In this document: positions 22,273 through 28,757 of the stretch, one piece after another
How the letters are laid out: each line of letters opens with the position of its first letter
Position numbering within the stretch: the stretch's first letter is position 1
Assembly: GCA_037367355.1 (NCBI GenBank)
Contig: CM074695.1
Location: forward strand, 4,774,001 to 4,838,000
Length of the DNA: 64,000 bases
Source: Neoscytalidium dimidiatum
Lineage: Eukaryota > Ascomycota > Dothideomycetes > Botryosphaeriales > Botryosphaeriaceae
Direction: 5' to 3'
The notes under the pieces: generated by a model
Told to the model about the DNA's origin: nothing
The model's input: the letters and a program-made list of their open reading frames with translations, nothing else
The model's database searches: none
Program-made: the position numbers and the translations under genes

Positions 22273-23252
22273 AGATGGGTCCTAGGTGAAGTGACCTGTG
22301 ATTGCTGCAGTTGACCGTATCGCTGTTCTGACGTTCAGTCGCAGCGTGAAAATCGTATCTCGACAAGTATTTTTTTTTTTTTTTAGGCAAGCGAACAAAG
22401 AATGGGACGTGCGAAATTGGCAAGATGCATGTGAGTTTAAGAGTACGGTTGGCACAAGATAACCATGGATGGTGCGTTCTGTTGAGCTCAGGGTCATCAG
22501 TGACCATGGAACGGACGAGGAAACTCTTAACTTGAGGCAAGAAGGCTCCGGGACGGATATGGTACTGTCCAATGATAGATTAAATGGTTGCTACAGAAGC
22601 AAGCCATGCAGCATGTAGTTGAATTAGCCGTAGCAGCGACTTCTAGAATAGCCATGTGCAGAACCGTGCTGAGCTGCAACATATACCAGCGCGGAACTGT
22701 TCTCTGCGCACAAGCTTAAGGGTCCAGTAGCCGCAATGTATCAGAGAGTGCGCCGAGCCAAAGCGAGTAGGGATGAGTTCAATTGGTGTAGCCAGTGCCG
22801 GAGCAGCTTGCACCACTGCCCTATAGTTGGTCATCCCGCAAAGGAAAGCAGCGAGCAAAGTCCTGTACTGAGGTTATTGGTGAGCCGTCCGCCTGAATAG
22901 ACCGCGATCATGGCAACGAGTGACCACAGTCCAGCGGCGATGCAATCGGAGAAGTGATAGTTATTCTTCGGGCGAAAGTGAGCGTTGATGGCGGCGATGG
23001 CCAGCGAGCGGCGACGGAGGTGGGTGGGAAAGTGGCTGCGTGCGAGCTGCAGGAACGGCGATAGATCGGAAGATTGCGGCTTCTGTTTCTATCCTGGCCG
23101 TGGCGCCGCGCTGACAAACCGCCGCCGCGGGAAAAGTCCAGAAGAGCGCGTTGACGGCGTCCACGTCAATTGCTCCGCTACACCGACCCCATCCACGGGA
23201 ACGACGTCCATCCATATTCCTTCGCATCCGTCCGCATTCTTTCGACCCCGCC
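22273..23252. other. Gene-free stretch upstream of MIA40
   Basis: It contains a T15 run at 22370-22384 and a GC-rich block from about 22970 that is the likely MIA40 promoter. No other gene is seen. Confidence 0.5.
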
Positions 23253-24095
23253 ATGTTCCGCCCGGCATCGCGCGCCGTCGTGCGCGCCGCCTCGACTTCG
23301 CCGCGTGCCCTCCGCCGAGCTCCCGCTGCTCAACACAGGCTCATCAGCACCGCCCCGCCCACCAAGAAGTCGCGCAGCTGGAAGAGCTCCCTAGCGCGCT
23401 GGGGTTTAGCCGGCGCCGCCGTCTATTACTACAACACGAGCAATGTCTTCGCCGAGGAGCCTGCCTGTAATGACCGCCTGCCCCAGAGCTCTTCCGCAAC
23501 TTCGGTGCACACAGCTCGCTGACATGGCCTACTCGCACAGATGTAGCACCGCAAGACGCCGTCCAAGTCGAAACGGAGAACCTGCCTACCATCGAGCAAG
23601 TTGCCGCCGAGCGCAGGAAGCGCGCCGAGGCCGAGCTGGCACGGAAGGCCGCCGCACAACAGCAACAAGCCTCGCCCGAACAATTACAGGAGGAGGCCGA
23701 CCAGCAGGGCGCCTTCAATCCCGAGACGGGCGAGATCAACTGGGACTGCCCGTGCCTTGGTGGCATGGCTCACGGACCGTGCGGTGAGGAGTTCAGGGCT
23801 GCCTTCAGCTGCTTCGTGTATTCCAAGGAAGAGCCGAAGGGCATGGATTGCATTGATAAGTTCAAGTGCGTGACACGATGGCATGGCTTTGTGGAACGTG
23901 CGATTGGCTGACAGTGGAAACAGGGGCATGCAGGACTGCTTCAGGCAATACCCGGACATCTACGGCGAGGAGCTCGAGGGCGATGACGAGGACAACGCTG
24001 AAACTGACGGCGCGGACGCTGCCGTCGCTCAGGACCTGGCCGAGGCACCCGCAAAGCCGCTTGAGGAGGCGCAGAAGCCGCTTAGCCAGAGCTGA
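23253..24095 (+). CDS. MIA40: Mitochondrial intermembrane-space import and assembly oxidoreductase Mia40/Tim40
   Basis: Predicted 236 aa from exons 23253-23466, 23541-23865 and 23924-24095. It oxidises incoming cysteine-motif proteins in the intermembrane space and is itself reoxidised by the Erv1 sulfhydryl oxidase. The N-terminus is an Arg/Ser/Ala-rich presequence followed by one membrane anchor ([20 protein letters not shown]). A charged Gln/Ala linker precedes the catalytic CPC motif (C141-P-C143) and the twin Cx9C helices C152/C162 and C175/C185. The tail is acidic. All six structural and redox cysteines are present, so the gene looks functional. The start is the first methionine in frame and gives the expected presequence. 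Confidence 0.97.
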
Positions 24096-24782: not shown

Positions 24783-25849
24783 ATGTCGTACGCCTCTGTT
24801 GCTGCTAGCGGCCCCTCCCAATCCGCCGATGAAGTGAGTTCCCATTGTAGTCGCTATTTCGAATGCGCACACAGCTAAACCAGTCGCAGGCGTAAGTCTT
24901 ACCAATATTTCATTGTTGTCACATACGCACATGCACGCGCGCACACCAGACACACATCGTGAGGGGCACAGGCACCATGCGGGGGGCGATGAGGGAGAGG
25001 GAAACCGATTGCAGAGGAGTTGCGCATGTGCGGATCCGCACATCGTGGTGTTGAGGCGGTAGCGATGTGCGTAGGGCTGAAGGCGAAGCCCAAAGAGCAC
25101 AGCCGTGCGGATCATCCAACCCTTCAGTTGCGACGCCGTTTCAAATCCAGATCCCCAACATGCCTCTCCTGCTGCGGAACACTCCCTCCTCTGCTTCCCA
25201 TGGCTGCCACTCTCTCCCCACACGTTGCCTGGGATATTTTCCCCTCGTCGTTGCGGCGCGTGTCCATCACGGAAGAGCTGCTGGCAGAACTGGTCAAACC
25301 GCCCACTCTAACTCCTGAACCCAGCCGCGCCCCGCCCGTTCCCGAGGTTGCCCACACCGACGAATCCACTCACTCGCTGATCGATGTCGATTCCCCGCAC
25401 ATCTCGTCCGTTCCCTCCGACTTCGAATCCCAGCCCATAAAGACCGAGACCCAGGCCGACCGCGTCGAGCGCGAGATCGAAGCCCTGGAGCGCCAGGCTC
25501 AGGAGAAGTTGCGCCAGGACAACCAAAAGGCCAAGTCCAAGGGGCGCAAGGCCGGCGCCAAGATCCGCGAGAATGCCGGCAACCCCGTCGTCATCGGCAA
25601 CGCCGTTACCATCGGCGCTCTCGGTGCCGTCCTGGGCTTCGGTGCCTACAAGAAGTACAATGCAGGCCAACTCAACTGGAAGCTCGCTGGCGCTTGGGCC
25701 GGAGTTGTGGGTCTGTTCGGCGTTGCCGATTACTACGTTTCCAAGTATGTGTCACATGCTTCCCTGACCGCCTACGCCGGGGCCATATGTATGCTGACAC
25801 AATTCCTCTCACCAGATACCTCTTCGAGAAGTACCCCACCAAGAAATAG
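24783..25849 (+). CDS. Putative mitochondrial outer-membrane protein, OM14-like
   Basis: Predicted 168 aa from exons 24783-24833, 24890-24891, 25325-25744 and 25816-25849. The protein begins MSYASVAASGPSQSADE, continues A-RAPPVPEVAHTDESTHS and LIDVDSPHISSVPSDFES, then a charged helix rich in Glu/Lys, and ends with membrane segments (NPVVIGNAVTIGALGAVLGFG and LAGAWAGVVGLFGVADYYVS) and the tail KYLFEKYPTKK. This order matches filamentous-fungal OM14-C domain proteins as I remember them. The join between the first 17 codons and the body needs two extra bases; a dinucleotide exon GC with perfect flanking splice signals supplies them (see separate entry). The intron before RAPP is long (433 nt) but ends with CTAAC and CCCAG. 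If instead the acceptor CCTTCAG near 25130 is used, about 65 unfamiliar residues would be inserted. Confidence 0.78.
24890..24891 (+). other. Candidate 2-nt microexon (GC)
   Basis: Intron 24834-24889 starts GTGAGT and ends GTCGCAG; the next bases are GC and then GTAAGT, a perfect donor. Including the two bases turns E17 directly into E-A-R-A-P-P-V-P-E-V in the frame of the rest of the protein. Leaving them out shifts the frame and leads to stops. Confidence 0.5.
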
Positions 25850-27134
25850 ACGACTCCTGATGATACCTACGCGGCGGCGTTCTGCGGACGTGTTTCGACT
25901 TTCATGATTATTCATTTCTCAACTCTGCCGGGTTTTCTTGATGGTTTACCTTCCAGCTCGGTGATAACGCAACCCGTGTCACTTGGACGTTTTAATACCA
26001 CACCCTTCTCAAATACCAAATCAACTTGTTCAAACCTTCTAAAATCCATTTCTTCAACCTGTGACCATCACCAGTCCACTGCGATCAATTCCGTCTTTCA
26101 TCTCGAATTGTTCCTCGTCCTCCATCTCGTTCCTTTCCTGCCGCGACTTCAATCATCTTTCATCCCACCTCAATCTGCTCTTTCTCATGATACCTGCTAT
26201 GTCCCTCGTCTCACCTCCATCCCCTCTCCTAACTCTTCAATATATCCCCCATCTAACCCACCGCCGCACCCCTCCCGCTCCATCGCCTCGCTCGCGAAAT
26301 CGTATCTTCCATCCGCCCGTCCGGGATGACTTGCCACTTGCGCTGTGTCTACACGGCTAGTATGCGGCACGAGCCGCGCGGGTCGGCAGTACCGCCGCTG
26401 AGGTGCGGAAGGTGGGATGTGCATGACGCGAGGTTGTGGATCGAGGATATGGTAGTGATAATGGTGTGGAGGCTAGTTGCGGGGAGTCTGTGATGGGTTT
26501 TCATGGTATGAGCGGAACGAAGGCGGGGGAGATGGAGGGAGGGGGGAAAATTACGGGCATTTGTGCTAGGGTTTAAGGTTTGGGATGGTTATGAGGTGCG
26601 TGGTGGGGGACGCCGGGAGGGAGATATGGAGGTAGAGGGGCGCTGGCGTGTGGGTAGATAAGGGGAAGGGCGAGCGCGTGCGGATGTCGTTGCTGTTGTA
26701 GGTGGAGATCTCTGGTTTTTTCATGGGTACTGGCGCCGATGAAAGAGTTATCCGGGGACTAAGACTTTGGCGGCGGTGAGAGCATGCGGTGCGGATGTCG
26801 GACTTGGCTACGACAATGACAATGGAGGTACACGTTGGTTAGAGTGTGCTGAGGAGGGGCGATATTCGACAACGGGAAGGATTGTGCAAGGATCGATTGT
26901 GTTGATGCATGAAAACAGCGGCGTCTTGGTCTGGGTCTTTGTCACTTGTGAGTGCTAGGCGCGAGCAGGTCCCATGGTGGCAGCATGAGTAGAGAGAAAG
27001 GTCAAGAGGCGGTGGCTTCGAGCCGGAAATGCTATTCGTTCACATCTCACCACTTACCATTTCGTACATATGCAAACACCCGCCGCTCGCAAAGGCCAAC
27101 CGAGAAGAACCCTCCCTTCCAAGTCTCCCACCCC
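25850..27134. other. Intergenic stretch with strand-asymmetric composition
   Basis: The first part (about 25900-26340) is strongly C+T-rich on the plus strand, the next (about 26380-26720) strongly G-rich. Open frames here (141 and 99 codons) are Ser/Pro-rich by-products of composition. No gene is supported. Confidence 0.5.
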
Positions 27135-28757
27135 TCAAGACAGCCTCATCGACACCGCCCTCAGCCGATCGCTCCAGAAATACACCACCGGCACGCCCAG
27201 ATAAACCGCCCACATGACGCCCGCGATGGTCGCGAACTGCGCCTTCGGCCCGCTCGATTGGTACCAGCCCAGGCTGCCGTAGCTCACGCCGAACGCGATG
27301 ACGTTCTTGAACACGTTGACCAGCACGCCGACGTGCGCGGCGCGCGCCGGGAAGCAGTCGACGCAGTACGTCAGGATCACGTTGGCCGACGCCGTCAGCC
27401 CGAACGTCGACATGCCCCAGAACGCGCTGACCCAGCCCCACGCCCATCCGCCCTCCAGCGCGACGCCCATCAGCAGCCACCCCAGCGGCGACACGACCGC
27501 GCCCGCCAGCAGCGCCGGCAGCCGGTCCCGCGGGTCGTGCCGCGTCCCGCCGCCGCCGCCGCCGCCGCCGCGCCGCGAGCAGGCCGCCGACGGGGATCCC
27601 GAGCGAGAGCCCGACGAGGGGCCCCCAGTTGAAGTAGCCGACGGCCTGCGCGTCGAAGAGGTGCGGCGGCGCGGAGTAGACGGCCGAGAGGATGACGGAG
27701 CAGAGGACGGTCCAGCCGATGGTCAGGCCGAAGAGGAGGTTGAGCAGGATGACGGGCGGGGCGAAGAAGAAGAAGGCTTGCTCGCGGAGGAGGGTGAGGA
27801 GGGAGGGGTGCGGCCGGTCGTGCGAGACGAGGAGGAAAAAGGTGCGTGTGAGGTAGGTCGTTTTAAGCGGTGGGAGGGGGTCGGACGCGGCGAAGGGGCC
27901 GCCCTCGTTTCTGTTTTTGTTGCTGCGGTCGGACGGCAGGATGGACGCAGCGGGTGAGGGCGTCTTGATGCCGACGGCGCGCAGTTCGACATCCTCAGAG
28001 GGCGTGCGAGAGGGCAGAGAGGACGGTGGTGGTGAGGCGTGCGTCGTCTCTGGGAGCATGATGAGGCACCCGAGGAGGTTGAGAGCTAGGGCGATGGCGC
28101 TGATGTTGAAGAACCAGCGCCAGCTGGAGAGGTGTGTTGCGATGCCTCCCGCGGCGATGGGGCCGAGTGATGAGCCCGCGGCCAGGAAGCCCACGTAGAT
28201 GACCATAGCTCGTCCGAGCTGCTGCTCTGGGAAGCACTCGGCCACAATGGCGGGGCCGAGTGCTTCTACCACACCGGCAAAGAACCCGCCCACGAAACGC
28301 GAGCCGACCAGTGAACCGTATGATTGCGCTTGGCCCGCCCAAACGTTGCAGAATAGAAAGAGGAGCATCGAGATATTAATCGTGTTGCGCTTGCCGATGT
28401 ACTCAGTGGCGGGGAGAGCGTGGAGATTCTGGAGATGATCAGCAAAGTAATGTATTGGATGAGTGGGGAAAGAGGAAGGCATACTGCAACTCCTATCATC
28501 AGGATTGCATATCCTGGAAGGCGAGATACTTGTGTGGTCGTGCACTGTAGATCTTGCATGATGGGCTCGAACAAGGGCGTGATTCCTGCGCCGAAGACTG
28601 TGCCCATCATGTTGTAGAAGCTGACATTGATGAGGATTACTATGCGCCATGAGATTGGCCAAGTCTGGTACTTGTCAGCTTTACTCCTGTTCACTGGAAG
28701 GGCAATCGTTCATACCACGGGGCTTGGCCCTTCATTCGTTGGAAGTGTGACTGCCAT
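27135..28757 (-). CDS. MFS transporter (DHA1-like), frame disrupted at a CGG repeat
   Basis: Exons 28757-28716, 28664-28485 and 28428-27135 encode about 505 aa of a major facilitator: TWPISWRIVILINVSFYNMM, RLPGYAILMIGVA, then GSLVGSRFVGGFFAGVVEAL, AECFPEQQLGRAMVIYVGFL and the motif SSWRWFFNISAIALALNLLG mark helices 1-6; a charged central loop separates a second half ending AFGVSYGSLGWYQSS and AGVMWAVYLGVPVVYFWSDR. After PVGGLLAARR the reading frame is lost in a (CCG)8 tract at 27547-27570 and continues one frame over as TRHDPRDRLPALLAGAVVSP. One base of indel in this tract would restore it. This may be a real slippage mutation or a sequencing error in a GC-rich homorepeat. Substrate unknown; the plasma membrane is the likely site. 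Confidence 0.8.
27547..27570. repeat. (CCG)8 microsatellite inside the MFS gene
   Basis: Eight CCG units followed by CGCCGCG. It coincides with the point where the transporter reading frame changes. Confidence 0.9.

What the first reader, a model, noticed from the sequence alone, without database searches (positions are those of the whole stretch)
24834..25324. Apparent 2-nt microexon (GC) in the OM14-like gene
Seen: the first 17 codons and the body of the protein are out of frame by two bases unless GC at 24890-24891 is kept. Those two bases are flanked by CAG on the left and GTAAGT on the right, both strong splice signals, and the following intron ends with CTAAC 14 nt before CCCAG. The resulting junction E-A-R-A-P-P-V-P-E-V agrees with family members as I recall them. 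Exons of two bases are extremely rare and would need exon definition without room for normal binding, or stepwise splicing of one long intron.
Basis: partly seen in the sequence, partly recalled or inferred. Interest (0 to 1): 0.75.

Follow-up and report, generated by a model that had tools for sequence, protein, structure and literature searches.

The report
Two-base exon in a mitochondrial gene
A fungal gene for a mitochondrial outer-membrane protein very probably contains an exon only two bases long, and the intron after it seems to hold a second, conserved beginning for the same protein, which would explain why gene models go wrong at this place.

Summary
Exon 1 (24783-24833, phase 0) and the body (from 25325) cannot be joined in frame through donor 24834 and acceptor 25324 unless two bases are added. 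GC at 24890-24891, between CAG and GTAAGT, supplies them. YAG-N2-GTRAGT arises in 21 of 5000 shuffles of the interval, with GC in 3 of 5000. Of 42 homologues on short, cDNA-like contigs, 37 carry both flanking motifs, and all 37 have exactly one residue (35 Ala, 2 Lys) at this junction; of 42 long-contig models with both motifs, 24 have more than one. Best reading: a 2-nt exon, the two introns being removed one after the other (0.82). It is of a known kind: 1-nt exons are published for Arabidopsis and Fusarium. A tandem acceptor at 24883 would make the exon 8 nt; less likely. No RNA and no relative's DNA were available; intron 1's acceptor and branch site score poorly.

The parts
24783..24833 (+). 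Exon 1: MSYASVAASGPSQSADE, ends in phase 0
   Evidence: Sequence; N-terminal motif shared with homologues
24834..24889 (+). Intron 1, 56 nt, GTGAGT...CAG
   Evidence: Donor at the 48th percentile, acceptor below all of 21 self-trained local introns
24873..24879 (+). Putative weak branch site AGCTAAA of intron 1; branch A24878, 11 nt before the end of CAG24889
   Evidence: Best match; score below all 21 training introns
24881..24883 (+). Upstream tandem acceptor CAG; if used, the exon is 8 nt (TCGCAGGC), E-SQA-RAPP
   Evidence: only 1 nt between the branch element and this CAG, so less likely
24890..24891 (+). 2-nt exon GC; joined as GAA-GC-C CGC = E-A-R
   Evidence: Phase arithmetic, chance control, family junction
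24892..25324 (+). Intron 2, 433 nt, GTAAGT...CTAAC (25308-25312)...CCCAG
   Evidence: Donor at the 86th, branch at the 29th, acceptor at the 5th percentile of 21 introns; 24834-25330 does not fold better than shuffles (z -0.03)
25200..25324 (+). Conserved open frame in the 3' part of intron 2: alternative N-terminus MAATLSPHVAWDIFPSSLRRVSITEELLAELVKPPTLTPEP(S), continuous with the body; probable alternative first coding exon
   Evidence: P0001-P0005 are 78-95% identical to it; P0065 scores 59.7 bits against at most 10.0 for shuffled segments
25251..25271 (+). LRRVSIT in the alternative N-terminus, LRR[VI]S[ILM]T in all seven sequences; resembles a PKA consensus (recalled, from no call)
   Evidence: Alignment
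25125..25127 (+). Rival acceptor CCCTTCAG; exon 1 joined here directly is in frame and runs through 25200-25324 into the body
   Evidence: acceptor at the 81st percentile, branch below all 21
25325..25744 (+). Exon 3 (if GC is exon 2): protein body RAPPVPEV...YYVS(K)
   Evidence: OM14_C match below Pfam's cut-off (20.4 against 26.1 bits)
25745..25815 (+). Last intron, GTATGT...TGCTGAC...CACCAG
   Evidence: acceptor and branch
25816..25849 (+). Last exon, (K)YLFEKYPTKK and stop
   Evidence: C-terminus like that of homologues

Best explanation
The gene encodes an OM14-like mitochondrial outer-membrane protein. Its main mRNA contains a 2-nt exon, GC, between a 56-nt and a 433-nt intron. Most likely the short intron is removed first as one intron-defined unit; that creates GAAGC|GTAAGT, a normal donor, and the long intron is removed in a second reaction, giving GAA-GCC-CGC (E-A-R). 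The two introns lie too close to be worked on at once, so removal should be one after the other. The 3' end of the long intron (25200-25324) doubles as an alternative coding start read straight into the body, probably from an internal promoter, so the locus makes two N-terminal forms. Shown: sites, phases, chance rate, family junction, conservation of the second N-terminus. Inferred: order of splicing, internal promoter, and that both forms are made.
For: Exon 1 is phase 0 and the body acceptor phase 2; no in-frame single intron uses both 24834 and 25324 (GC donors). The 2-nt path shares the top motif score (19) among 1167 in-frame two-intron paths with an inner exon of 1-60 nt. Chance: 21 of 5000 shuffles, with GC 3 of 5000; 2 of 1059 other genome pieces, none with GC. 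One residue at the junction in 37 of 37 short-contig homologues with both motifs (35 A, 2 K) against 18 of 42 long-contig models; Fisher p 5e-9. Of the 16 models from sources other than NCBI that have the anchor but no N-terminal motif, all 16 have R or S before the anchor (counted by hand from the rows, sources). Four models (P0012, P0049, P0079, P0084) show Val after the motif and R or S before the anchor. Alternative N-terminus about as conserved as the body: 95% against 92% for P0001, 59% against 61% for P0065.
Against: No RNA from this species; no relative's DNA found. Intron 1's acceptor and branch score below all 21 local training introns; intron 2's acceptor is at the 5th percentile. 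The 8-nt alternative ties on motif score. Among the 120 listed hits no close relative (80% identity or more, P0001-P0005) shows the E-A-RAPP junction; the closest that does is P0006 at 67%. That short contigs are cDNA is inferred from length and open frames. R and S have codons without AG, and only protein was seen. Homologues are related, and the 2.5-kb cut was chosen after seeing the list, so the Fisher p is too small. P0023, P0057, P0067 (QA-RAP) suggest that some lineages may lack intron 2.
Confidence: 0.82

Rival explanations
1. The exon is 8 nt, not 2: intron 1 ends at the tandem CAG24883 and the exon is TCGCAGGC, giving E-S-Q-A-R-A-P-P.
For: Same donor, in frame, equal motif score. Three long-contig models (P0023, P0057, P0067) read QA before RAP, as an earlier acceptor would give.
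Against: Only 1 nt lies between the best branch element (ends 24879) and CAG24881-24883, against 7 nt for CAG24889; fungal examples in passages of PMC5639578 have 5-7 nt. None of 37 short-contig homologues with both motifs has SQA; all have one residue.
Confidence: 0.08
2. There is no tiny exon in the main mRNA: exon 1 is joined directly to 25128 (294-nt intron), in frame, making a longer protein that carries the MAATLSP segment internally.
For: In frame, strong donor, acceptor at the 81st percentile of local introns. The segment 25200-25324 that it would include is conserved.
Against: Branch site below all 21 training introns. 25128-25199 has no coding bias in this frame (-0.295 per codon). 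The three named Botryosphaeriaceae models start at MAATLSP or MTATLSP instead of using this ordinary intron. Short-contig homologues join E-A-RAPP or E-K-RAPP directly.
Confidence: 0.06
3. A single intron 24834-25346 with a GAG acceptor removes ARAPPVPE, and the tiny exon is an illusion.
For: In frame, CTAAC upstream, motif score equal to the best single-intron path (9). Some relatives' models drop this stretch, e.g. P0028, P0050, P0064.
Against: GAG acceptor; in 17 aligned homologues A20, P21 and P24 of this stretch are invariant; the dropping models look like annotation work-arounds (inference).
Confidence: 0.02
4. 24834-25324 is a classical stwintron (one intron inside a splice signal of another), leaving no exon between.
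For: Two adjacent introns, stepwise removal, an order with a known stwintron (bioDA in Botryosphaeriales, passages of PMC5639578).
Against: Complete removal of 24834-25324 leaves the frame wrong by two bases. The second donor GTAAGT is intact and does not need the first intron's removal to be formed.
Confidence: 0.01

Closest known systems
1-nt exon of CYP621A P450 genes in Fusarium (PMC12940212; outline with abstract, passages and Discussion seen)
   Same: Filamentous ascomycete; ultra-small exon revealed by a phase conflict and by conserved protein sequence; gene models wrong at this place
   Different: One base, backed by SRA reads; here two bases, no reads, and a second conserved coding start inside the following intron
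1-nt exons of plant APC11 and VPS55 (PMC4674806 and PMC8831610; passages seen)
   Same: Ultra-small exons; for VPS55 GTRAGT donors and wrong N-termini when missed; sequential removal proposed for APC11
   Different: Plants, one base, confirmed experimentally
Stwintrons of Pezizomycotina (PMC5639578, PMC12403724; passages seen)
   Same: Two consecutive intron-defined reactions at one position, testable by the splicing intermediate
   Different: In a stwintron the outer intron is only usable after the inner is removed and no exon remains; here both introns have complete sites and two bases remain
Microexon switch of Xlr2 in Trichoderma (PMC11121469; outline with abstract seen)
   Same: Fungal microexon affecting which protein form is made
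   Different: The abstract describes regulated inclusion; here inclusion is probably constitutive and the alternative start a separate event
OM14, yeast mitochondrial outer-membrane ribosome receptor (PMC4268710; title, start of abstract and two reference-list passages seen)
   Same: C-terminal half matches Pfam OM14_C weakly; uniref titles of some homologues begin 'Mitochondrial outer membrane protein OM14'
   Different: Below Pfam's cut-off; ribosome binding not testable here

Membership tests
Ultra-small (1-3 nt) spliceosomal exons | Exonic bases bounded by a usable acceptor and donor | tested here: met
   CAG|GC|GTAAGT at 24887-24897; donor strong, but acceptor and branch of intron 1 weak
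Ultra-small (1-3 nt) spliceosomal exons | Needed to reconcile the phases of the flanking exons | tested here: met
   Phase 0 to phase 2; no single intron with both sites is in frame
Ultra-small (1-3 nt) spliceosomal exons | Predicted residue conserved in the family | tested here: met
   Ala in 35 and Lys in 2 of 37 short-contig homologues with both motifs
Ultra-small (1-3 nt) spliceosomal exons | RNA reads across the double junction | not testable with these tools
   No tool here gives RNA reads of this species
Stwintron | Inner intron splits a splice signal of the outer one; removal leaves no exon | tested here: not met
   Removal of all of 24834-25324 breaks the frame; GTAAGT is intact
OM14 family (Pfam PF17304 OM14_C) | Score above the curated cut-off | tested here: not met
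   20.4 bits against 26.1; E 0.00072. Some homologues carry the precomputed domain
OM14 family (Pfam PF17304 OM14_C) | C-terminal membrane helices | tested here: inconclusive
   Helices 129-154 and 160-180 in a low-confidence model (mean pLDDT 60.7)
OM14 family (Pfam PF17304 OM14_C) | Ribosome/NAC receptor at the outer membrane | not testable with these tools
   Needs an experiment
Alternative first coding exon | Second N-terminus under protein-level constraint | tested here: met
   Identity close to the body's; aligns without gaps among six and with 3 gaps to P0065. Constraint on DNA level could not be told apart
Alternative first coding exon | Own transcription start | not testable with these tools
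   No RNA or CAGE data

The most novel reading that the evidence does not exclude
The 2-nt exon is ancient in Dothideomycetes (signs of the same phase conflict are visible in gene models of several genera) and sits in a two-ended gene. In Botryosphaeriales the intron behind it carries a conserved alternative first exon whose N-terminus has a PKA-type site. The order of removal of the two introns, or use of an inner promoter, would then decide between a constitutive and a kinase-regulated form of the outer-membrane protein.
Probability: 0.25. Interest if true: 0.72.

Novelty: new member of a known kind. Interest (0 to 1): 0.52.

Why it matters
Exons of one or two bases test the lower limit of what the spliceosome can use. 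Among the papers seen here the one fungal nuclear case is a rarely expressed Fusarium P450 gene (PMC12940212). A 2-nt exon in a conserved mitochondrial gene would be a second fungal test case, and it would explain why many public gene models of this family differ at one exact place, which hides the true N-terminus. The conserved alternative start inside the following intron makes the locus a compact case in which splicing and start-site choice may set which protein form reaches mitochondria.

Tried and rejected
Whole-genome enrichment of tiny exons: the strict pattern CTAAC-N3-25-CAG-NN-GTAAGT gave 3 matches against 5 for the reversed control, so no sign of a genome-wide habit. The window's own site does not fit that strict pattern, because its branch is not CTAAC.

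RNA structure bringing the sites together: 24834-25330 folds no better than shuffles (z -0.03). Rfam at gathering thresholds and the tRNA scan of the whole window gave nothing.

Relatives' DNA: the search for related loci in genome contigs and viral contigs gave no relative; both hold prokaryotes or viruses, so little was expected. More homologues of the alternative N-terminus: (P0065, residues 1-50) returned only itself; one search returned P0001-P0005 only. The apparent likeness in P0056 (LTEEILSSLLK) scored 2.8 bits against a shuffled median of 2.6 and maximum of 10.0 and is rejected.

Splice-site models: a larger self-training run drifted to non-intron signals (234 'introns') and was discarded. 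Only the 21-intron set is used; it is small and was selected with a CTRAY branch requirement, so percentiles are rough and branch percentiles are biased against other branch sequences. D3 was scored one base off.

Structure prediction gave low-confidence models (mean pLDDT 60.7 and 66.6); no fold search was made.

Homologue counts: 120 of 368 hits are listed by the tool; 118 were used in the short/long comparison (42 short, 76 long) and two without a contig length (P0094, P0105) were set aside there, though not in the 49 and 35 counts of broken models, to which they do not belong. A first version of the count had slightly different motif rules (17 of 41 long models with one residue); one search is the one quoted. 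Order names of the homologues' species are recalled.

Full report
The window lies in an unnamed 43.76-Mb genome of 40 contigs. The gene's best named homologues are from Macrophomina phaseolina, a record labelled Neofusicoccum parvum (locus tag GTA08_BOTSDO10487) and Diplodia intermedia, so the organism is very probably a member of the Botryosphaeriaceae (inference). The gene looks single-copy: of three matches of P0001 in the genome, one is the window (E 2e-113) and the other two are weak (E 0.005 and 0.06).

Anatomy. Exon 1 is 24783-24833 (MSYASVAASGPSQSADE, phase 0). GTGAGT follows at 24834. CAG ends at 24889, GC is 24890-24891, GTAAGT starts at 24892. CTAAC is 25308-25312 and CCCAG ends at 25324, followed by C CGC GCC CCG. 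The body runs to 25744, a last intron is 25745-25815, and the protein ends YLFEKYPTKK with its stop at 25849.

Is GC needed? GT-AG paths from the start codon to the body frame were enumerated. Forty-two single-intron paths are in frame and stop-free (20 printed); none uses donor 24834 with acceptor 25324. The only one ending at 25324 starts at a poor donor inside codon 2 (24788) and removes the N-terminus. No GC donor gives a stop-free path to 25324. Of 1167 in-frame two-intron paths (inner exon 1-60 nt) two share the top score: the 2-nt exon, and an 8-nt exon that starts after a tandem CAG ending at 24883. The best branch element of intron 1 ends at 24879: 1 nt before the tandem CAG, 7 nt before CAG24887-24889. 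Fungal examples in passages of PMC5639578 have 5-7 nt between branch element and acceptor triplet, so 24889 fits and 24883 is too close.

Chance. In 5000 dinucleotide shuffles of 24834-25324, YAG-N2-GTRAGT with room for two introns appears in 21, with GC in 3, and any exon of 2, 5, 8, 11 or 14 nt in 79. In 1060 same-length pieces of the 264 kb held the raw counts are 3, 1 and 10, but one piece is this site itself, so among 1059 others they are 2, 0 and 9.

Family evidence. Of 120 listed homologues (368 found), 118 with a contig length were split at 2.5 kb, a cut chosen after seeing the list. Of 42 on short contigs, 37 carry both the N-terminal motif and the RAP-like anchor, and all 37 have exactly one residue between them: Ala 35, Lys 2. 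Their contigs are 0.9-2.2 kb with an uninterrupted frame, as transcripts would be; that they are cDNA is an inference. Of 76 on long contigs, 42 carry both and 18 have one residue (Ala 10, Lys 7, Val 1); 24 have more (Fisher p 5e-9, not corrected for kinship). The broken models hint at where the true sites are. Of 49 with the anchor, 34 have R or S before it, as read-through of an xAG|N acceptor would give; by hand count this holds for all 16 models from sources other than NCBI that have the anchor but no N-terminal motif. Of 35 with the N-terminal motif, 9 continue with Val, as read-through of a phase-0 GT donor would give; P0028, P0041 and P0097 among these are ambiguous. Four models (P0012, P0049, P0079, P0084) show both signs, so the same two-base conflict probably exists elsewhere. 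R and S can have other codons, and only protein was available. Against a uniform picture: P0023, P0057 and P0067 read QA-RAP, which fits a single intron ending CAG|GCN, so some lineages may lack intron 2.

The five best-matching proteins, P0001-P0003 (named records) and P0004-P0005, do not begin with MSYA. They begin MAATLSPQVAWDLFPSSLRRVSITEELLAELVKPPTLTPEP-RRAPP or close variants. In the window this is 25200-25324, the 3' end of intron 2, in frame with the body and without a stop. It is about as conserved as the first 90 residues of the body: P0001 39/41 (95%) against 83/90 (92%); P0002 88% and 89%; P0003 85% and 82%; P0004 78% and 81%; P0005 83% and 82%. P0065, whose 135-residue body is identical to that of the Phyllosticta capitalensis protein P0036, has the same segment: 24/41 (59%) against 61% for the body, and an HMM score of 59.7 bits where 50 rounds of 109 shuffled segments reached at most 10.0. 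An unconstrained intron would not be expected to keep this (inference; no DNA of relatives was seen). P0036 reads MSYADVAASGPRQSP before that same body, so both N-termini probably lie at one locus there. LRR[VI]S[ILM]T, which resembles a PKA site (recalled), is kept in all seven sequences. Coding bias is mild: 0.091 per codon for 25200-25325, against 0.165 for exon 1, 0.367 for the body and -0.295 for 25128-25199, which fits a start near ATG 25200 better than a long insert from acceptor 25127.

Mechanism. Ascomycetes pair splice sites by intron definition (passages of PMC12403724). Intron 1 (56 nt) is within the 51-109 nt range of the 21 local introns. Its removal leaves GAAGC|GTAAGT, a strong donor for intron 2. 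The reverse order also works, because removal of intron 2 leaves CAG|GCCGCGCC. Simultaneous recognition across two bases is not plausible (inference). If intron 2 is retained after intron 1 is removed, the frame stops at once (GAA GCG TAA), so the second N-terminus needs its own start, most likely an internal promoter. Order, promoter and the making of both forms are inferred.

Weak points. Local splice-site scores come from only 21 self-trained introns. On these, donor 1 is at the 48th and donor 2 at the 86th percentile, but acceptor 24889 and its branch site are below all 21, acceptor 25324 is at the 5th and its branch at the 29th; acceptor 25127 is at the 81st with a branch below all 21. 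No RNA and no relative's DNA could be read. None of the close relatives among the 120 listed hits shows the E-A-RAPP junction; the closest that does is P0006 at 67% identity.

Comparison. One-base exons are known in Arabidopsis APC11 (PMC4674806, passages), plant VPS55 (PMC8831610, passages) and Fusarium CYP621A (PMC12940212, outline, passages and Discussion). [quoted passage not shown] Searches for phrases naming a 2-nt exon listed no paper whose title or abstract start describes one; only open-licence PMC text was searched and most hits were not opened. Stwintrons (PMC5639578, passages) are similar in two-step removal but leave no exon; that test fails here. The find is a new member of a known kind with an unusual neighbour: a conserved alternative coding start inside the second intron.

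Noticed in passing
window 23151-24095, + strand: Directly upstream, on the same strand, lies a MIA40-like gene (PDB Mia40 chains, best E 6.7e-15, for 23765-23908; CHCH E 4e-5, below Pfam's cut-off), so two genes tied to mitochondrial import sit in tandem. The gene's limits are only roughly judged.
   Followed up: partly
window 27040-28662, - strand: MFS transporter reading frame (MFS_1, 89 bits), convergent with the OM14-like gene.
   Followed up: no
window 25026-25043: Perfect 18-nt palindrome ATGTGCGGATCCGCACAT inside intron 2; the interval as a whole does not fold better than shuffles.
   Followed up: partly
P0030, P0035, P0051-P0055, P0069, P0078, P0081, P0082, P0085, P0116: Thirteen Aureobasidium gene models carry a long extra N-terminus (MSLEFLQRPNSDA...) before MSYASVAASGP, perhaps another alternative start in this family.
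   Followed up: no
homologues P0037, P0043, P0062, P0063, P0099, P0100, P0117, P0118: Some homologues have Lys instead of Ala at the junction residue (EEKRAP or DEKRAP); if a tiny exon exists there it would be AA, or the intron is differently placed.
   Followed up: no
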